Assembly (NCBI GenBank): GCA_019347575.1
Contig: JAHWKY010000006.1
Span: 62,001 to 126,000 of the forward strand
Source: Actinomycetota bacterium
Lineage (GTDB): Bacteria > Actinomycetota > Nitriliruptoria > Nitriliruptorales > Nitriliruptoraceae
DNA: 64,000 nt
Reading direction: 5' to 3'
This document shows, piece by piece, positions 3,711 through 32,806 of this stretch (its first letter is position 1; each line of letters begins with the position of its first letter). The position numbers and the translations under genes were made by a program. The notes under the pieces were generated by a model, which was given only the letters and a program-made list of their open reading frames with translations, did no database searches and was not told where the DNA came from.

Positions 3711-3828
3711 ACGTACAGAGGACGCGCGACACAAAGGTGAGGGTGGGGCCGTAGCATCCGCTGGCATGTCGGAGAAGGGCGCTAACGTCGAGAGGTCGAG
3801 GCGTCCACCTCCCAGGGGTCCCAGATCG

Positions 3829-4983
3829 ATGGCGTCGGTTCTGATCGTCGACGACAGCGCTACGAACCGTGCCGTGCTCGCCGAGGCGCTGGCTGACGCT
3901 CACCGCGTCTTCGAGGCGTCCAACGGTGCGGAAGGGATCGGACTCGCACGTGTCGAACGGCCGGACGTGGTAATCACCGACGTGCTGATGCCCAAGGTCG
4001 ACGGCTACCAGCTGTTACGTGACCTGCGTGGGGATCCGCACACCTCATCCGTGCCCGTGATCGTCCACACCTCGGCCTACGAGGACGATGAGGTCCTCCG
4101 GATCGTCGGCCACGACCCTCACACCTTCGTGCTGCCGAAGCCCAGCACGAGCCACGCGATCGTCGCTGCCGTGGCCACCGGCCTCGCGGCGGCCCAGCAT
4201 CCCCGACGGGACCCCGGTGGGACGTGGAACGGTGAGACGGACGCCGGGAGGGACCAACTGTCGGCGCTCAACACCCAGCTTCTCGCCAAGGTCCGTGCGT
4301 TACAGCTGGCTGATCGCGAACGCGAGCGGCTCCTCGCGCAGCTCGTGCACGCACAGGAGGAAGAGCGCGAACGCATCGCCGCGGACATCCACGACGACTC
4401 GATACAGGTGCTGACCGCGGCCTCCATGCGTCTGGAACTGCTGGGCCGAGCGTTGAAGGACCCCGCATCGCTCGAACAACACGCGAAGCTGCGTGAGACC
4501 GTGACGTCGGCGATCGCGCGTCTGCGTCGGCTGCTGTTCCAGCTGCGTCCGCCGGAACTCGATCGAGAGGGGCTCGCGCGGGCCCTGGAGGTTTACCTCG
4601 AGCACACCGCCGACGAGGTCGGGTACCGCTACGAAGTCCACGATCGCACCGAACGCCAGCCTGCACCGGCCGTTCGGGTGCTGCTCTACCGCATCGCCCA
4701 GGAAGCGCTCGTCAACGTCGCCAAGCACGCACGAGCCTCGTCCGTCCAGGTCCTGCTGGACGAGGATGAGGACGGTTACGTCATGCGCGTCGTAGACGAT
4801 GGGGCGGGTTTCGTGCCCGACGAGGTCGTGACCGCGCCGCCCGTTCACCTGGGGCTCAGTTCCATGCGCCAGCGAGCCGAACTGGCCGGCGGTCGCTGCC
4901 GGATCGACAGCTCCCCAGGCCGAGGTACCCATGTGGAGGTGCGGATCCCACGTCGTGATGTGACCGCAGACACCACCAAGTGA
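3829..4983 (+). CDS. Hybrid receiver-histidine kinase (HisKA_3 type)
   Basis: A soluble 384-residue signalling protein. An N-terminal receiver (residues 1-120; Asp51 in VVITDVLMPKVDG, Lys104 in VLPKP) is followed by a coiled-coil linker. Next comes a NarX/DegS-type dimerisation domain with the phosphorylated histidine in ERIAADIHDDSIQVL (~His188). The C-terminal HATPase has ALVNVAKHA (N box) and VVDDGAGF (G1). It has no transmembrane segment, so its input is likely phosphorylation of its own receiver. ATG 3829 follows AGGGG; an in-frame ATG at 3766 would add 21 residues. The stop overlaps the GTG start of the next gene (GTGA), so kinase and receiver-EAL protein form an operon and probably a phosphorelay. 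Confidence 0.93.
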   Translation: MASVLIVDDSATNRAVLAEALADAHRVFEASNGAEGIGLARVERPDVVITDVLMPKVDGYQLLRDLRGDPHTSSVPVIVHTSAYEDDEVLRIVGHDPHTFVLPKPSTSHAIVAAVATGLAAAQHPRRDPGGTWNGETDAGRDQLSALNTQLLAKVRALQLADRERERLLAQLVHAQEEERERIAADIHDDSIQVLTAASMRLELLGRALKDPASLEQHAKLRETVTSAIARLRRLLFQLRPPELDREGLARALEVYLEHTADEVGYRYEVHDRTERQPAPAVRVLLYRIAQEALVNVAKHARASSVQVLLDEDEDGYVMRVVDDGAGFVPDEVVTAPPVHLGLSSMRQRAELAGGRCRIDSSPGRGTHVEVRIPRRDVTADTTK

Positions 4984-6170
4984 ACAACGTGGAGAGCCTG
5001 CGGGTGGTGATCGCCGATGATGACCTCGTCCTGCGCGAGGCGCTGACCGAGGTGATCACCGCCTCGGGCCTCGAGGTCGTGGCGGGCGCGGCCGACGCCG
5101 AGAGCGCGATCGCCATGGCCCGCGAGCACCAGCCCGACCTCGTGCTGCTCGATGTGAAGATGCCGCACGGGGGCGGTCCGCGGGCAGCGCAGGAGATCGC
5201 CCGTGAATGTCCCGCGACACGGGTGGTCGCGCTGTCGGCCTACGACGATCGCGGCGCCATCCTCGAGATGCTGCACGCCGGCGCGATGAGCTACCTGATC
5301 AAGGGCGTGTCCACCAACCGCGAGATCATCGACACCCTCCGGCGAACCGCCGCCGGCGAGATCTCGCTACCCGCCTCGGTCGGCGAGAAGGTGTTGCACG
5401 AGCTCGGTGAGCACCTCGACCGCACCCACAGCGAAGAGCGACGTCGCCAGAGCATCGACGCACGCGTGCGAAGGGTGATCGCGGCCGGACAGGTCGACAT
5501 CTTGTTCCAACCGATCCGTCAACTGGCCACCGGCAGCGTGGCGGGGTACGAAGCACTTGCGCGCTTCGATGCGGGATCAACCCGCGGGCCTCGAGCGTGG
5601 CTCGACGACGCTCGGAGCGTGGACGCGCTGCTGGAGCTCGAACTGCTGGCGGTACGCGCGGCACTGGCCCACGTCGCGGAACTTCCGGCGGGGACCTACC
5701 TCGCCGTCAACGTCTCGCCGGCCACCGCCACGGACGAGGGACTGCAAGACCTCGTCCTGTCGGCCGCGCCCTCCGCCACGGTGCTCGAGATCACCGAACA
5801 CGCCCCCGTAGACGATTACGAGGGGTTCCACCGCGCCGTGGAGCCCTTGCGGTCCGCCGGCGTCCGGCTCGCGATCGATGACACCGGTGCCGGGATGGCC
5901 AGTCTGCGCCACCTGCTGTCGCTGGCACCGGATGTGATCAAGCTCGATGTCTCGCTGACCCGGGGCATCGACAGCGATCGCAGCCGACGCGCTCTGGCCC
6001 GCGCACTCATCTCGTTCGCGGACGACACCGGTAGCCAGATCGTCGCCGAGGGTGTCGAGACCGATCAGGAGCTGCACGCGCTGGTCGACCTGGGCGTCAC
6101 CTACGGACAGGGTTACTTCCTGGGGGTGCCGCGGGCATCGCTGCAAGCCGGAACGCCGCAAGGCGCGTGA
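4980..6170 (+). CDS. Receiver-EAL protein, predicted c-di-GMP phosphodiesterase
   Basis: A 396-residue response regulator whose output hydrolyses cyclic di-GMP to pGpG. The receiver occupies residues 1-125 (DDD acidic pocket, Asp58 in LVLLDVKMP, Lys108 in YLIKG). The EAL domain spans ~165-390. The signature catalytic residues checked are present: GYEALAR (Glu191), LAVNVSP (Asn), EITEHA (Glu), AIDDTGAG (Asp pair), IKLDVSL (Lys), VAEGVET (Glu) and GQGYFLG (Gln). It is therefore predicted to be active. It is translationally coupled to the upstream kinase. The TasA-like gene 228 bases downstream and the c-di-GMP riboswitch at ~29.8 kb suggest an envelope or matrix role (inference). Confidence 0.95.
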   Translation: MNNVESLRVVIADDDLVLREALTEVITASGLEVVAGAADAESAIAMAREHQPDLVLLDVKMPHGGGPRAAQEIARECPATRVVALSAYDDRGAILEMLHAGAMSYLIKGVSTNREIIDTLRRTAAGEISLPASVGEKVLHELGEHLDRTHSEERRRQSIDARVRRVIAAGQVDILFQPIRQLATGSVAGYEALARFDAGSTRGPRAWLDDARSVDALLELELLAVRAALAHVAELPAGTYLAVNVSPATATDEGLQDLVLSAAPSATVLEITEHAPVDDYEGFHRAVEPLRSAGVRLAIDDTGAGMASLRHLLSLAPDVIKLDVSLTRGIDSDRSRRALARALISFADDTGSQIVAEGVETDQELHALVDLGVTYGQGYFLGVPRASLQAGTPQGA

Positions 6171-25430: not shown

Positions 25431-26728
25431 ATGGCAACCACCGACACGATGCGGGCCTACGGGCCCGACTCCGACACCGCCACACCGGTGCCCGACTTCG
25501 CCCGTGCCCTCGCCGACATCGATGCGCTGGCCGCGACCGACCCGCTGCTGGTCCACCCCGACGAGCTCCCCGCGGGGCTGAAGCAGCTCCAGGCTCTGTC
25601 CAACAAGCTGGGCACCGTGCGGGCACGCTGGATCGCCGCGAGCGAGACCCGCAACTCCAACGGGGCGGAGCGCCACAGCAAGTGGCTGAGCGGCTAGCTG
25701 GGGGTCGACGGTGACGTCGCCGCCAAGGACGCCGCCGTCGCCCACACCGTCAAGGACCACGAACCGGTCGCCGAGGCGGCCGGGGCGGGCGAGATCAGCC
25801 CCGACCACGTCCGCGTCATCGGCCGCGCCGCCGGACAGGTCGAAGAGGAGCACGAGGCCGCGCTGGTGGACGAGCTCGTCGGCTACGCCAAGGACCACAC
25901 CCCCGAGCAGACCGCCCACGCTCATCGTCCCAACCTTCGCAGTGGCGACGGGCTTTTCAGACTTCCACCGGATCCGGTGGTTTCGGTCCTGAAACCACCG
26001 GACTCCGGTGGAAGTCGCAAAGCACGTCCGCGACCACCAACACCAGCATGCGCGAAGGGCTGTTCACGCCCGAGGTCGCCAACAAGCTGCAGTCCGCCCT
26101 CGAGCCCCTCACCGGCCCCGACGGTGACGACGTGCCCGAGGACCAGCGCCGCAGCTACCCCCAACGCCTCCACGACGCCCTCGGCGAACTCGCCGACATC
26201 GCCATGGGCACCCCCGGCTTCCCCCACTCGCGCGGGCTACCCACCCAGGCCATGATCATCGTCGACCTGCCGTGGCTGATCACCGAGCACGGCCTCGACC
26301 TCGACGAGTACGGGCTGCGGATGCGGTCCGGCCCCGAACCGGCGATCACCTTCCAGGGCCAGCCCATCCCCGCAGAGACCGCGCGGCGGATGCTGTGCGA
26401 CGCCGACATCTCCCGGGTGATCACCAACGGGCCCTGCCAGGCCATCGACGTGGGCCGCTCCACCAACGCCTGGCCCGCCCCCATGCGCCGCGCCATCTAC
26501 GCCCGCGACCGCGGACGCTGCCGCCGCTGCGGCCGAGCGGCCCAGACCGCCCACCACATCCGCCACTGGCTCGACCTCGGCCCCACCTGCGTCGACAACG
26601 GCATCTCGCTGTGCCTGAGCTGCCACCTCGCCGTCCACGAAGGCCACTGGCGCATCACCCTCCACCCCGACAACTCCGCCACCTTCACCGCACCCCAAGG
26701 AGACGTCCTCGAACGACCACCCCCCTGA
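25431..26728 (+). pseudogene. Broken DUF222-HNH (13E12-type) nuclease gene
   Basis: The pieces form a DUF222 protein with a C-terminal HNH nuclease domain, a repeated family in actinobacteria. The first 88 codons (from ATG 25431) end at an in-frame TAG (25695-25697). DUF222-like sequence continues in the same frame (AVAHTVKDHEPVAEAAGAGE) to ~25930. A ~57-bp double palindrome (25960-26016) then interrupts it. The remainder resumes in another frame at ~26035 (MREGLFTPEVANKLQSALEP) and ends with a plausible HNH zinc core: CRRCGRAAQTAHHIRHW, then LCLSCHLAVHEG. The product is therefore inactive unless read through. It sits behind an SOS-type promoter. Confidence 0.85.
25960..26016. repeat. Paired palindromes inside the DUF222-HNH gene
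   Basis: The left palindrome (25962-25984, core CCACCGGATCCGGTGG) and right palindrome (25991-26014, core CCACCGGACTCCGGTGG) are inverted copies of each other with one indel, separated by 6 bases. The whole can fold into one 25-bp stem or two small hairpins. Relatives with the same core occur at 46319-46414. Confidence 0.9.
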
Positions 26729-27045: not shown

Positions 27046-29628
27046 TCAGAGATCGGCTCCGGCTCCGTAGACGGTGGGCACGAACGGGACCGCCCCCGCC
27101 GGGAGCGACCCGCCGCCGAGCTCGGTCAGGAAGGAGCCGTCGGCGTCCTGGCCGTACGACCTCCACTGCGCGGTGGTCTTCGCGGAGTCGTCGCCCCAGA
27201 AGAAGCGGCGCTGGGTGAGGCTGTCGAGGCGGTAGGTGTTGGCCTCGAACCGGTTGCCGCGGTCGGTGTACGCCGCGGTCGTCTCGCCCTGGTCGATGTT
27301 CAGCCCGGTGCGGCCCTCGGTGACCTGGATGTCGTTGTGGTGCACGTGGAGGTTGGAGACGACGGGACTGCGGTTGCCGGCCGAGCGCGCCACGATTCCC
27401 GAGGGGTTGCCGTACACGAGGTTGTGGAACACCTCCACGTCCGGCGAGCTGCTGACGTAGATGCCCGCGGCGTTGATGACCGGAGACTTGCCAACACCGT
27501 TGTAACGCACGACGTTGTCGTAGATGACCGCACCGTGGCTGATCTCGTAGAAGATGCCCTTCTCGGTGTTGTGTTCGACGAGGTTCGAGCGGATCACGGC
27601 GTCGTGGTTGTAGACGTCGAACCACGGACCGGGGCCGTCGTTGTGGTGCACCCAGTTCTGCTCGAAGAGGATCCCGGCGGCGTGCTCCGCGAACTTGGTG
27701 GCGCCGCCCTCCCAGCTCCACTTGAAGTCGAGGACCGCGTTGTGAGCGATCTCGTTGTGCCGGACCGTTACGGGGAGGCTCTGGCCCTCACGTGGTCCCC
27801 AGCGGAAGGTGCCGACGCCCTTGACACCGAGCTGACCGTTGTGGTGCAGGCGCGAGTACTCCAACACGGACCCCGGACCGGTAGAGACGCCCGCCCCGTG
27901 GTTCCACCGTGCGGTCACACGCCGGATGGTCCAGTTGGCGCTGTTGATGGCGTTGATCGCCCCGTGCGAGGAGCGGTTCGCGTACTTCTCGACGGTAACG
28001 TTGTCGATGGTCACACCGTCGACGTTGGGCCCATCGAACGCGTACTCGACGGCGCTCGCTTCGATGCGGCCGAGAGTCGTCGGATCGGTCCCGACCCAGA
28101 TACGGTCGGCCGCATCGTCGAGGAACCAGCGCCCCGGCGCGAGCTCGGCCACACTCCCGACGCGCTGCCACCGGGCGTCGTCCACGAACAGCTCGTTGCC
28201 GTACGCGTGCCAGGGGTTGCCACCGCTGTCGATGGTGCCGTTGGACGAGCTGGTCTGGGTCTGTCCCTCGACGTACCAGGCGCCGCTGGCGGCCCGCCAC
28301 GTGATCGCTCCCGCCGACAGGTCGCGTGCGCCGGACAGGACCGTGCCGGGCTGGCCGACGAACGTGTCGCCTGACTTCGGCGTCGCGGTGGCGAGCCGGT
28401 GGATGCCGGCGGTCAGCAGGTAGGTGGTGCCGGCGGGGTGGGCGTCGACCACGGTCTGCAGGTCCGTGCCGGGCTCGACGACGACGTCGGCGTCGTAGGT
28501 GGGCAGTCCCGTCGGGGCGATGCGATCAGCCATGACCCATCCGTCACCGGTCGGCTCCGGCTCTGGGTCGGGAGTCGGCTCCGGGGTCGGGATCGGCGTC
28601 GGTGACGCCGTCTGCTCCGACGCCGTTGGCAGCGCCTGCGCCACCTCGGTGGCGACCCCGTCGTTGACGGCGGCAGGTCCGCCGACCACGAGGACCCCGC
28701 TGGGACCATCGAACTCCGCGATACCGGCGAGCTGGACCGGATCGGCGCTCTGTGGCGGCACCAGCAGCAGCGTGCCGTCCAGTGCCGCCGCGAGCGGGCC
28801 CGCGGCGAGGCCATCGGGGAAGTCGGCGCCCGTGGCGAGCACGAGCGGTCCCGATCCCACGGACAGCGCCGCGACCCGGAGCGAGGTCTCGTACCGGGTG
28901 GCGCCAGCGACCCGATCCACCGCGTAGCCGCGCCTGATCAGCGCATCCGCGACTGGAGCCGGCACGGCTGCTTCACCACCGATCAGCAGCACACGAGCCG
29001 GGCGTAGGAGATCGAGCGCCTCCCAGGTCGCCTTCGGGACGTCGGTGTTCACGACGAGGACGGGCCACGGCTCGCCCGACGCGGCGCGTCGTGCCGCGAG
29101 ACCGGAGACACCAAGCGCGTCGGGCCAGCCGCCCACGACCAACGCGGTGCCGCCCGGCGCGACGTCCAGGTGGCGGGCGACGACGGCGGCGGTCTCGTAG
29201 CGGTCCTTGCCCGCGAGGCGGACCACGGCGTCCACGCCCGCCTCGCTCAGGCCATCGGCGACGGCACCGGAGAGGGCGACCTCGCCGCCGAGCACGTAAG
29301 CGGTGCGAGCGCCGAGGCGGGCGACCTCCGCGGCGACGTCATGAGCCAGAGCCGTCGAGGGCGTGATCAGCAGCGGGGCGGAGAGTCGGCCGGCGAGTGC
29401 GGCCCCGGAGAGCGCATCGGCGGGGTCGTCCGCGCGCGCGATCACCACCGCGTCCGACGTTCCCCAACCGTGGCGGCTGACCGCCACCGCGGTGGCGACC
29501 CGGCTGTCCCCGGCGATGCGGCTGAACTCGGCCGCTCGAGCAGCGGGTACGGCGACCACGCCGACCAGCAGTCCCGCCACCACGACGGCAGCGACGGACC
29601 GGAGAGTGCTCCAACGCAACGCGACCAC
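27046..29628 (-). CDS. Secreted cell-wall-binding / parallel beta-helix protein
   Basis: An 860-residue exported protein. A signal peptide (SVAAVVVAGLLVGVVAVPAA) precedes three cell-wall-binding repeat 2 units (~35-320; SRIAGDSRVATAVAVSRHGW, RLAGKDRYETAAVVARH, DRVAGATRYETSLRVAAL). A Pro/Thr linker (TPEPTPDPEPEPT) follows. The C-terminal ~480 residues are a right-handed beta-helix with recurring N/G turns (VTIDNVTVEKYANRSSHGAI, IRSNLVEHN, VIYDNVVRYNG, VEVFHNLVYGN). Such helices usually bind or cleave polysaccharide. GTG 29628 follows GAGGGAG; GTG 29646 is an alternative. A c-di-GMP-I riboswitch lies ~100 bases upstream, so expression probably responds to c-di-GMP. Confidence 0.9.
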   Translation of the reverse strand: MVALRWSTLRSVAAVVVAGLLVGVVAVPAARAAEFSRIAGDSRVATAVAVSRHGWGTSDAVVIARADDPADALSGAALAGRLSAPLLITPSTALAHDVAAEVARLGARTAYVLGGEVALSGAVADGLSEAGVDAVVRLAGKDRYETAAVVARHLDVAPGGTALVVGGWPDALGVSGLAARRAASGEPWPVLVVNTDVPKATWEALDLLRPARVLLIGGEAAVPAPVADALIRRGYAVDRVAGATRYETSLRVAALSVGSGPLVLATGADFPDGLAAGPLAAALDGTLLLVPPQSADPVQLAGIAEFDGPSGVLVVGGPAAVNDGVATEVAQALPTASEQTASPTPIPTPEPTPDPEPEPTGDGWVMADRIAPTGLPTYDADVVVEPGTDLQTVVDAHPAGTTYLLTAGIHRLATATPKSGDTFVGQPGTVLSGARDLSAGAITWRAASGAWYVEGQTQTSSSNGTIDSGGNPWHAYGNELFVDDARWQRVGSVAELAPGRWFLDDAADRIWVGTDPTTLGRIEASAVEYAFDGPNVDGVTIDNVTVEKYANRSSHGAINAINSANWTIRRVTARWNHGAGVSTGPGSVLEYSRLHHNGQLGVKGVGTFRWGPREGQSLPVTVRHNEIAHNAVLDFKWSWEGGATKFAEHAAGILFEQNWVHHNDGPGPWFDVYNHDAVIRSNLVEHNTEKGIFYEISHGAVIYDNVVRYNGVGKSPVINAAGIYVSSSPDVEVFHNLVYGNPSGIVARSAGNRSPVVSNLHVHHNDIQVTEGRTGLNIDQGETTAAYTDRGNRFEANTYRLDSLTQRRFFWGDDSAKTTAQWRSYGQDADGSFLTELGGGSLPAGAVPFVPTVYGAGADL

Positions 29629-29724
29629 GAACCGCTCCCTCGACACCCATGAGGGGGGTGGTCGCGGAACGGCGTGTGGTCACGCCCTCCGTTCACAGCC
29701 CGCACGCGAGGCGCGGGACTGGCC

Positions 29725-29808
29725 TGGTCCTTCGGTAGCCCGGCTGTCCGTTCTGGATCCGTAGCTTTGCACTACCCGCCTTCCGACGGGCTCGCCTTTG
29801 TCGGCACC
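29725..29808 (-). ncRNA. Cyclic di-GMP-I (GEMM) riboswitch
   Basis: On the minus strand the sequence contains the class I core in order. ACAAAGGCGAGCC comes first. Then stem CCCGUC/GGCGGG is capped by a GGAA (GNRA) tetraloop. UAGUGCAAAGCUACGG follows, with a second stem (CGG-a-UCC with GGA-cag-CCG, loop AGAAC) and finally CCGGGCUACCGAAGG. These match the conserved GGCnAnCC, GCAAAGC and GGGnUACCGA blocks and the two-helix layout with a tetraloop. It lies in the leader of the cell-wall-binding/beta-helix gene. A hairpin with GGCGTG-acca-CACGCC between aptamer and start may be the expression platform. Confidence 0.88.
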
Positions 29809-29875
29809 ACGCCCCTGTTGCTCTTGCTCTATCGTTGTCGTCAGGCCCGGAACGCTGCTTGAGTCGGCCGTTCGG

Positions 29876-32692
29876 TCACCGCACGACCCCCCGCCGCCGC
29901 CGGGCGAGCCCCGCCAGCAGCAGCAGCGCCCCGAGCGCGGCGATGCCGCCGCCGGTCGTCGGCAGTGGTGCGACAGGGGCTGGGGGCGAAGCAGGTGCCG
30001 GGGGTCGTGGCTCCTCGACCGACCCGACACCGAACGCCAGCACCTGCTGGAAGGTGGGGCGGTTCTGCCAGTCCATCGGCGGGGGCACGTCGGAATCGAG
30101 CGCGCTGAACGAGATGTCCTGGCTGGACTCGTCGAAATCCCACTCCGAAGGGTCGGTGCCGTGGTCCGCCTCGATGCCGGCCAGCACCTCGTCGAGACTG
30201 TCCAGCAGCGCCTGCCGGCACGCGTCAGCATCGCCGCCACCGCAGTAGGTGCGCGACGCCGGGGCGGTGAGGGACTCGCCGAGGAGCTGGCGAAGGTCGC
30301 GGTGGATCTGGCCGTGCCAACCGCCGAAGTAGGCGCTGCCACCGGGGCGTGCCCGTTCGGTCAGCGCCAGCGGCACCTCGTCCATCGCCGCCCCCAGGGT
30401 CGGGCGGAAGATGGCCTCGGTGAGGGCCGGGAACCACGCGTCGTAGAGCACCAGCGGGGCCTGCACGTCGACCTCGCCGTCGTCATCGAGGTCCCGACGG
30501 TGGGCCCCGCCGTCGACCCAGTCGTCGATCAGATCGAGCGCTGCCTCGAGCCGGGCATCGCCGGCGTCGCCGATCACCTGGCGCACGAGACGGTGGACCT
30601 CGAGGGCGTAGAGGTCCTGCGTTCCCGCGATCGCCATCGCCCGGGTGAGCTCGACCAGGCTGACCTTGCCGTCATCCGCGGCGCCTCGCAGCACACCGTC
30701 CGTGAGCATCGTCACCCGTTGGGTGGGCCCGAAGGCGTACACGTTGTCGGCGGCACGGAAGTCCGGAGCCTGCTTGCCGTTCCAGTTCGTGATGAACCCA
30801 CTCGCCGGGTTCGTGGCGTTGGGGATCTCGGACTTCTCCAGGAGCCGCACCGGATCCCACGCCGGGTCGCCGCTGATGGGCAGATCCGGATCGACGCCAT
30901 CTCGCAGCACCGGGTAGTGGCCGGTGAGCTGGTAAGCGATGTCGTCGTCGTGCACCAGGAACCAGTTGAAGCTGTAGCTGAAGAAGTCGACGAACGCGTC
31001 CTTGGCGTCCTGGATCGACTCGATGCGGTCGGGGTCGTGCAGCTTGGTGTAGGTCAACGTGGCGTCGACCTCCTTCATGTAGCTCTCGCGGCTGAGCACG
31101 AACACGTACGGGACACCGCCGTCGGCCAGGGCGCGGGTCTGCACGATGCCCGCGTGGGTCCGCTCGGTGGTCGCCGAGACGACGACGTCCGTGGGGTCCT
31201 CGGGGATGCCCGCCGCCGTCGGCTTCGCGACCCACGTGTCGGTCCGGGTGTGCAACGCCTTGCACTCCCCGTCGTGGAGGTAACCGTCGCTGTCGAGCGT
31301 CGCCTCGCCGCCGCCGGTGTCGCACAGCGGGAACGCGCGGATGTCACGGTGGTCGCCGTTGGCGGTGGTCGCGCTCCAGGCGTAGTTCTGGCCCCGTCCG
31401 AGGAGCACGTACAGCCCCACACCGGGGAACGCCGCCCCGCGCGCGTGCACGCCCGGGGCGTGGATGTCCAACTCCAGCAGAACCTCGGGCGAGAAGTACC
31501 CGACCTGCGGGCCCATCACCGCCAGCGCCTGGCCGGTGTCCGACAGCTGCGAGCCGACGAGCAGGGCGTTGCTGGCCGGGCGACCGGGCCCGAGAGCCAG
31601 GGGCCCGAACGGTGTGTCGATGGTCTCGAGCGCCGCGTACGCCGCGTTCACCTCGGCGGCGACGGCCTGCGGGTCGTCAGGCAGCACGACCGCGTCGGGG
31701 TCGGGCTCGCCGAGGTCGTCGTTGAACGGGAACGGCGCGTCGACGGTGTGGGGCGCCTCCGGGTCGTCGGCCATGCGGAGGTCGGCCAGGATCTCGCGCG
31801 CCTGGGATCGCTCGAAGCCCTCGTCCTCGAGCGCCCCGACGACGGCGGCGTTCTGCAGCTGCGCGCCGCCGCCGGGACTGAACACGGCGCCGATGTTCAC
31901 GGCCACGGCGACGGTGTCCGCGACGGTCCACGGCTCGGGGACCTGTTGGAGGAGGTGGTAGACGGCGGGGAGCTTCGACTGGTCGAGAGTGACCTCGCCG
32001 ATGTACTGGTTCACGCCCGCGACGTACGCCTCGACGTCGGCGCGAGCGATCGGGCCGAGTTCGGGGTCGAGCGTCTCGACGCGATCGGCCATCGCGGTCA
32101 GCTCCTCCTCGGTGTAGTCGGCGAGCTTGCGCATCGCGAGGTCGTCCTCGATGGTGTCCGGGTCGGGCCCGGTCAGCTCCGACAGCTTGCCGCGACCGAG
32201 GTGGCGCAGCGCGTCCATCGCGAACAGCCGGTCCTGGGCGTTCACGTAGCCCGCGGCGTACATCGCGTCGTCGCGCGTGAGCCCGTAGATGTGGGGCACG
32301 TCGTAGGAGAGGTCGCGGATGATCACCGCGGCACCGTCCCGCAGCGTCGTCACCTCGCCGACGTCACCGGCGGGGACCCCGAACGAGGCGTCCTTGAACA
32401 GCGCGTCGAGGTCGTCGGCCGTGAGGTCCGGCGCGGCCCGGATCAGGTCCTCGTACAGCGCGATCTGATCGGTGTTGTGCGGGGGGAAGTCACCGCCTGC
32501 CTGGACCTGGAGGAACTCCGCGTCGGTGAGGTGGTGGCCCTGGCCAGGCGGGAGGATGTTGCGAGCGGAAGCCGCCTCATCACCCTCACGGTACGCCTGG
32601 ACCGGTGAGTCCTGGCTGATCGCGGCGGCGGGGAGGCTCGCAGCGAGCAGAGCGACGCCGACGAGCGTGAGCAAGGTCCGGGAAGGAGACAT
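29876..32692 (-). CDS. Penicillin-acylase family (S45) hydrolase with LPxTG anchor
   Basis: A 938-residue Ntn-hydrolase precursor. The signal peptide is LLTLVGVALLAASLPAAAIS. The alpha-subunit region includes HIYGLTRDDAMYAAGYVNAQ DR-type sequence. The autoprocessing site and nucleophile are in GRPASNALLVG (Ser374), followed by the beta-subunit segment LGRGQNYAWSATTANGD. Family members hydrolyse amides such as penicillins, N-acyl-homoserine lactones or aculeacin. The C-terminus has LPTTG (910-914), a hydrophobic stretch and RRRRG, so it should be anchored to peptidoglycan by sortase, which is unusual for this family. ATG 32692 starts at the signal peptide; longer frames are rejected. Confidence 0.92.
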   Translation of the reverse strand: MSPSRTLLTLVGVALLAASLPAAAISQDSPVQAYREGDEAASARNILPPGQGHHLTDAEFLQVQAGGDFPPHNTDQIALYEDLIRAAPDLTADDLDALFKDASFGVPAGDVGEVTTLRDGAAVIIRDLSYDVPHIYGLTRDDAMYAAGYVNAQDRLFAMDALRHLGRGKLSELTGPDPDTIEDDLAMRKLADYTEEELTAMADRVETLDPELGPIARADVEAYVAGVNQYIGEVTLDQSKLPAVYHLLQQVPEPWTVADTVAVAVNIGAVFSPGGGAQLQNAAVVGALEDEGFERSQAREILADLRMADDPEAPHTVDAPFPFNDDLGEPDPDAVVLPDDPQAVAAEVNAAYAALETIDTPFGPLALGPGRPASNALLVGSQLSDTGQALAVMGPQVGYFSPEVLLELDIHAPGVHARGAAFPGVGLYVLLGRGQNYAWSATTANGDHRDIRAFPLCDTGGGEATLDSDGYLHDGECKALHTRTDTWVAKPTAAGIPEDPTDVVVSATTERTHAGIVQTRALADGGVPYVFVLSRESYMKEVDATLTYTKLHDPDRIESIQDAKDAFVDFFSYSFNWFLVHDDDIAYQLTGHYPVLRDGVDPDLPISGDPAWDPVRLLEKSEIPNATNPASGFITNWNGKQAPDFRAADNVYAFGPTQRVTMLTDGVLRGAADDGKVSLVELTRAMAIAGTQDLYALEVHRLVRQVIGDAGDARLEAALDLIDDWVDGGAHRRDLDDDGEVDVQAPLVLYDAWFPALTEAIFRPTLGAAMDEVPLALTERARPGGSAYFGGWHGQIHRDLRQLLGESLTAPASRTYCGGGDADACRQALLDSLDEVLAGIEADHGTDPSEWDFDESSQDISFSALDSDVPPPMDWQNRPTFQQVLAFGVGSVEEPRPPAPASPPAPVAPLPTTGGGIAALGALLLLAGLARRRRGVVR

Positions 32693-32806
32693 GGGCGATC
32701 CTGCGGCTGGGGGTCCACGGGATGGACTACGACGTCGGTAGGGCGACTTCCTGCCCAGTGGGTGCAGGTCGACCACCGGCTACCGGGCCGAGATGCACGC
32801 GCTCGG

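What the first reader, a model, noticed from the sequence alone, without database searches (positions are those of the whole stretch)
29725..29808. c-di-GMP-I riboswitch in front of a cell-wall-binding beta-helix protein
The minus-strand leader carries the conserved GEMM blocks, including a GGAA tetraloop stem, GCAAAGC and GGGCUACCGA. The controlled gene encodes a secreted protein with three cell-wall-binding repeats and a beta-helix. This links the second messenger to surface architecture.
Basis: partly seen in the sequence, partly recalled or inferred. Interest (0 to 1): 0.72.

Follow-up and report, generated by a model that had tools for sequence, protein, structure and literature searches.

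The report
Cyclic-di-GMP riboswitch before surface-protein gene
The stretch is a genuine class I cyclic-di-GMP riboswitch, a known kind of RNA sensor, in front of a gene for a secreted cell-wall-binding protein; related bacteria carry the same sensor in front of other surface-protein genes, so it is a well-supported new member of a known family, not a new kind of system.

Summary
Confirmed. The minus strand at 29806-29731 is a class I c-di-GMP riboswitch aptamer: Rfam RF01051, 43.5 bits (gathering 35), E 3.3e-5. A model built from 26 related aptamers without this one gives 64.3 bits, E 1.2e-15. The ligand-contact bases are canonical (G20, A47, C92). Unconstrained folding recovers P2, P3 and an outer P1 of about nine pairs. 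Weak points: a short P3 with no recognisable tetraloop receptor, and U instead of C at the interhelical pair. The likely start (GTG 29628), 102 nt downstream, opens an 860-residue secreted protein with three CWB2 repeats and a beta-helix. The genome has c-di-GMP enzymes and one other such riboswitch, before a response regulator. 34 of 61 genomes examined (this one and 60 relatives) carry the element, mostly before prepilins, CAP proteins and other surface proteins, two more with CWB2. The link to cell-surface biology is therefore supported. The output is not shown: no terminator, and a significant start-codon hairpin points to translational control, perhaps OFF, but its predicted coupling to the aptamer is no better than chance.

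The parts
29731..29806 (-). c-di-GMP-I (GEMM) riboswitch aptamer core
   Evidence: RF01051 43.5 bits, E 3.3e-5; leave-window-out clade model 64.3 bits, E 1.2e-15
29721..29813 (-). aptamer with outer helix P1: 29813-29811/29723-29721, 29809-29806/29728-29725, 29804-29803/29730-29729
   Evidence: minimum-energy fold of the leader at all but one of the transcript lengths tried
29774..29791 (-). P2 stem with GNRA (GGAA) tetraloop
29796..29796 (-). ligand-contact base G20 (Vc2 numbering): G, canonical
   Evidence: alignment to RF01051 position 11
29768..29768 (-). ligand-contact base A47: A, canonical (not the A47G 'GGC' variant)
   Evidence: numbering from PMC7288161
29734..29735 (-). CC holding ligand-contact base C92
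29737..29766 (-). P3 with very short distal part (UCC-AGAAC-GGA) and one A.C mismatch (29758/29746); no recognisable tetraloop receptor
29665..29691 (-). hairpin B, forms early and excludes start sequestration
   Evidence: predicted fold of transcripts ending at 29660 and 29640
29619..29685 (-). start-sequestering hairpin C covering Shine-Dalgarno sequence and GUG
   Evidence: fold; region more stable than 499 of 500 versions with shuffled upstream part
29635..29641 (-). Shine-Dalgarno-like GAGGGAG
   Evidence: sequence
27046..29628 (-). controlled gene: 860-aa secreted protein, signal peptide, 3 x CWB2, Pro/Thr/Glu linker, beta-helix
   Evidence: ORF, Pfam, PDB relatives Cwp8, Cwp6, SlpH
28654..29520 (-). 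three CWB2 repeats (29260-29520, 28951-29220, 28654-28914)
   Evidence: genome coordinates minus 62000
27490..27960 (-). right-handed beta-helix region
   Evidence: PF13229, residues 557-713

Best explanation
A class I c-di-GMP riboswitch in the 5' leader of a cell-wall-binding beta-helix gene. Shown by sequence: aptamer fold, canonical ligand-contact bases, position, target gene, c-di-GMP enzymes in the genome. Inferred: when c-di-GMP is high it binds the pocket between P2 and P3 and stabilises P1; this lets the downstream leader fold into a hairpin that buries the Shine-Dalgarno sequence and GUG start, lowering translation of the surface protein. When c-di-GMP is low, P1 opens, its 5' strand can pair with 29662-29652, hairpin B forms, and the start is exposed. 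Identity as a c-di-GMP-I riboswitch: about 0.95. Translational rather than transcriptional output: about 0.7. OFF rather than ON: about 0.55. The confidence below is for identity and target, not for the direction.
For: RF01051 hit; clade model without the window; only two hits genome-wide with either model. Ligand bases G20, A47, C92 all canonical and shared with most relatives. Interhelical pair C44-G83 is U.G here and U-A in relative L065, so pairing is kept. Aptamer and P1 appear in unconstrained folding. 13 GGDEF matches over the Pfam cut-off and 6 EAL matches in the genome, one EAL response regulator in this window. 34 of 61 genomes carry the family. No terminator-like site in the leader; the start hairpin region beats 499 of 500 shuffles in energy. 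In relatives' CAP-gene leaders an upstream GACGGAGC can pair with GCUCCGUC before the start; this is the consensus fold of the 12 leaders and its z-score is negative in all 12.
Against: The alternative pairing that would couple P1 to the start hairpin is no better than chance (615 of 1000 shuffles as good). At equilibrium the full leader keeps the start buried with or without the aptamer, by roughly 8-12 kcal/mol, so switching would have to be co-transcriptional. In relatives, the P1 state buries the Shine-Dalgarno region more than the anti-P1 state in only 5 of 8 leaders. P3 is short with an A.C mismatch and the element has the lower of the genome's two scores. No promoter-like site was found, though the scan does not cover all actinobacterial promoters. 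No experiment was done.
Confidence: 0.9

Rival explanations
1. Same riboswitch, but an ON switch: c-di-GMP binding raises production of the surface protein, as expected if the protein helps sessile growth.
For: The class I riboswitch Vc1 of Vibrio cholerae activates gbpA (PMC4744006), and Bc2 of Bacillus thuringiensis is described as an ON switch (PMC11218506). High c-di-GMP usually favours surface attachment (general knowledge).
Against: Folding gives no state in which aptamer formation frees the start; the aptamer and the start-burying hairpin are compatible. Direction cannot be settled by folding here.
Confidence: 0.35
2. Control of transcript elongation, Rho-dependent termination or mRNA stability rather than ribosome access.
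For: Class I riboswitches in Clostridioides difficile are transcriptional OFF switches (PMC11477304). The 102-nt platform holds several strong hairpins.
Against: No intrinsic-terminator-like site in the leader; Shine-Dalgarno and start lie inside a hairpin of significant stability.
Confidence: 0.25
3. A degenerate aptamer that no longer senses c-di-GMP, kept as a leader relic.
For: Lower Rfam score than the second copy in the genome (43.5 against 60.4), one inserted base in the junction, A.C mismatch and short P3.
Against: All ligand-contact bases canonical, P1 intact with nine pairs, 64.3 bits in the clade model; short P3 is common in relatives with otherwise strong scores.
Confidence: 0.07
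4. Chance match in GC-rich sequence.
For: High GC makes stable folds common; the proposed coupling helix here is no better than shuffles.
Against: E 1.2e-15 with a model that excluded it, next non-riboswitch hit 10.3 bits; leader position in front of a surface gene like its relatives.
Confidence: 0.01

Closest known systems
Rfam RF01051 c-di-GMP-I riboswitch (GEMM-I; Vc2 of Vibrio cholerae as structural type)
   Same: Full-length match over threshold, GNRA loop on P2, GCAAAGC core, G20/A47/C92 identities, leader position before an extracellular-function gene.
   Different: Very short distal P3 without a recognisable tetraloop receptor, U.G at the interhelical pair, one inserted base in the P2-core junction.
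Rfam RF03167 c-di-GMP-I-GGC variant
   Same: Same clan; short P3 like several relatives that match it.
   Different: The window has A, not G, at position 47, and RF01051 is the family reported for it.
c-di-GMP riboswitch regulons of Clostridioides difficile and Bacillus thuringiensis (PMC11477304, PMC11218506)
   Same: c-di-GMP riboswitches controlling surface proteins, type IV pili and signal-transduction genes.
   Different: There class I elements are described as transcriptional switches; here a GC-rich leader without terminator. No CWB2 gene is named as a target in the passages read.
Cell wall proteins with CWB2 repeats (Cwp8, Cwp6, SlpA of C. difficile)
   Same: Three CWB2 repeats related to solved structures 5j6q, 5j72, 7acz.
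   Different: Partner domain here is a right-handed beta-helix; similarity is distant.

Membership tests
c-di-GMP-I riboswitch (RF01051) | Covariance-model score above the curated threshold over the whole model | tested here: met
   43.5 bits, threshold 35, positions 1-87 of 87; clade model 64.3 bits
c-di-GMP-I riboswitch (RF01051) | Ligand-contact bases G20, A47, C92 | tested here: met
   G 29796, A 29768, C 29735/29734
c-di-GMP-I riboswitch (RF01051) | P2 capped by a GNRA tetraloop | tested here: met
   GGAA loop in a 6-7 bp stem
c-di-GMP-I riboswitch (RF01051) | Interhelical C44-G83 pair | tested here: inconclusive
   U.G wobble in the window; C in 34 of 44 loci, other bases in 10
c-di-GMP-I riboswitch (RF01051) | Tetraloop receptor in P3 | tested here: inconclusive
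   No recognisable receptor in the short P3; short P3 also in several relatives
c-di-GMP-I riboswitch (RF01051) | Binds c-di-GMP and changes expression of the downstream gene | not testable with these tools
   Needs in-line probing and reporters
c-di-GMP-I-GGC variant (RF03167) | G at position 47 | tested here: not met
   A in GCAAAGC
3',3'-cGAMP riboswitch (GEMM-Ib) | A at position 20 | tested here: not met
   G at 29796
CWB2 cell-wall-binding protein | Three PF04122 repeats plus secretion signal | tested here: met
   Three repeats, E 3.8e-43; signal peptide judged by eye only

The most novel reading that the evidence does not exclude
In this class of high-GC bacteria the c-di-GMP-I aptamer is a re-used module attached to unrelated surface proteins (prepilins, CAP, CWB2, SLH, SpaA fold, camelysin-like), working by translational three-strand exchange in place of terminators, with some members having shifted ligand specificity (a G20A copy, L044, and an A47G copy, L060).
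Probability: 0.35. Interest if true: 0.5.

Novelty: new member of a known kind. Interest (0 to 1): 0.33.

Why it matters
It extends a well-studied sensor to a poorly studied, surface-protein-rich lineage and names testable targets: one CWB2 protein among dozens is singled out for direct c-di-GMP control, and relatives suggest a lineage-wide regulon of surface proteins read by one RNA family.

Tried and rejected
Coupling of P1 to the start hairpin through pairing with 29662-29652: energetically possible but no better than shuffles, so kept only as a proposal. Intrinsic terminator and sigma-70 promoter: none found. Riboswitch in front of the closest paralogue (C2:143740-146151) and of homologues in G046 and G050: none. 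Relatives of the protein in the named genome collection: none confirmed in two scans; found through unnamed relatives instead. Structure of the beta-helix from a single sequence: mean pLDDT 36.9, discarded and not searched. Literature searches for this riboswitch in Nitriliruptor-type bacteria found nothing relevant.

Full report
OBSERVATION. The minus strand of 29806-29731 matches Rfam RF01051 (c-di-GMP-I aptamer) over its whole length at 43.5 bits, above the gathering score of 35, E 3.3e-5; it is the only Rfam hit in the 64-kb window. None of 14 control genomes has a hit over the cut-off. To test it independently I aligned 26 aptamers from other loci, leaving this one out, built a covariance model and searched: the window element scored 64.3 bits, E 1.2e-15; apart from the genome's second riboswitch (which was in the model) the next best hit in 105 kb was 10.3 bits. 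A whole-genome search with the same model finds exactly two elements.

ANATOMY. The minimum-energy fold of the leader contains P2 with a GGAA (GNRA) loop, P3, the inner closing pairs and an outer P1 of about nine pairs (29813-29803 with 29730-29721), without any constraint, at all but one of the transcript lengths tried. The ligand-contact bases named for Vc2 (G20, A47, C92; PMC4744006; PMC7288161) are G 29796, A 29768 and C 29735/29734. The base at the interhelical pair is U instead of the common C (34 of 44 loci), facing G; relative L065 has U facing A, so pairing is kept. P3 is short, with one A.C mismatch, and no tetraloop receptor is recognisable; several relatives also have a short P3.

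TARGET. The likely start is GTG 29628, six bases after AGGGAG, 102 nt after the aptamer. It opens an 860-residue protein: a signal-peptide-like N-terminus (by eye), three CWB2 repeats (PF04122, E 3.8e-43), a Pro/Thr/Glu linker and a right-handed beta-helix (PF13229, E 2.5e-17). The CWB2 part is related to solved C. difficile proteins Cwp8, Cwp6 and the S-layer protein. The genome has 157 CWB2 repeat matches, yet only this CWB2 gene has the riboswitch. The closest paralogue (C2:143740-146151, 55-58% identical by part) and homologues in two relatives have none, so the riboswitch-gene pairing is local to this lineage or was lost elsewhere.

SIGNAL. The genome has 15 GGDEF matches, 13 of them over the Pfam cut-off, and 6 EAL matches. 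One EAL protein, fused to a response-regulator receiver, lies in this window at 4980-6170. The second riboswitch (C31:16426-16502) lies ten bases before a stand-alone response regulator gene and about 2 kb from a GGDEF-EAL gene.

RELATIVES. 34 of 61 genomes (this one plus 60 relatives) carry the element at E up to 0.01, 32 over the cut-off. Of 40 downstream proteins, this one included, 15 match the prepilin methylation motif, 12 the CAP domain, 3 CWB2, 2 camelysin, and one each SLH, SpaA fold, GGDEF-EAL and response regulator. The other CWB2 targets are L063 (PKD plus three CWB2) and L042 (CAP plus CWB2). In L039 the riboswitch serves an SLH protein next to a beta-helix homologue of the window's protein. 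Downstream ORFs were picked by hand, so single assignments may err.

MECHANISM. No terminator-like or sigma-70 promoter-like site was found. The Shine-Dalgarno sequence and GUG lie in hairpin C (29685-29619), whose region folds more stably than 499 of 500 versions with the upstream part shuffled. An earlier-forming hairpin B (29691-29665) excludes C. A pairing of the P1 5' strand with 29662-29652 would link aptamer and start; when the transcript ends near 29640 the two states are within about 1.3 kcal/mol, which would give an OFF switch acting during transcription. But that pairing is no better than chance (615 of 1000 shuffles), and at full length the start stays buried in either state. In CAP-gene leaders of relatives the analogous pairing (GACGGAGC with GCUCCGUC) is the consensus fold of 12 leaders, with z below zero in all 12, yet state-by-state burial of the Shine-Dalgarno region follows the OFF logic in only 5 of 8. 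I therefore hold translational control as likely and OFF as slightly favoured, both inferred. Published class I elements act both ways: OFF in C. difficile (PMC11477304), ON for Vc1 (PMC4744006).

VERDICT. A real new member of a known riboswitch family in an under-studied lineage, with a well-defined surface-protein target. Literature searches of the held library found no report of this element in such bacteria, but that library lacks most subscription journals.

Noticed in passing
L044 2773-2856: A relative's aptamer (62.2 bits) has A at the position of G20, the change known from 3',3'-cGAMP riboswitches, before a signal-peptide-bearing, camelysin/TasA-like secreted protein.
   Followed up: partly
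L060 3034-3122: A relative's aptamer before a CAP-domain protein has G at position 47 and passes the RF03167 'GGC' variant threshold (61.5 bits).
   Followed up: partly
L032 3427-3503: The genome's second c-di-GMP-I riboswitch (60.4 bits) ends ten bases before the ATG of a stand-alone response regulator, so its 3' end nearly touches the ribosome-binding site.
   Followed up: partly
window 29876-32776 (-): Penicillin-amidase family protein (E 8.4e-99) just upstream, ending in LPTTG plus hydrophobic stretch plus RRRR, a sortase-signal-like tail; the genome has four sortase matches.
   Followed up: partly
window 4980-6170 (+): Response-regulator receiver fused to an EAL phosphodiesterase domain, next to a histidine-kinase-like gene at 3766-4983.
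   Followed up: no
window 25431-26728 (+): DUF222/HNH endonuclease-like sequence that reads as separate open frames with stops in one frame; apparently a broken or frameshifted copy.
   Followed up: no
L068 1-300 (-): In prepilin leaders an upstream GCAAG can pair with CUUGC near the start, and in L068 ACUUGCACC can instead pair with GGAGGUGCAAGU; a possible second three-strand arrangement, seen by eye only.
   Followed up: no
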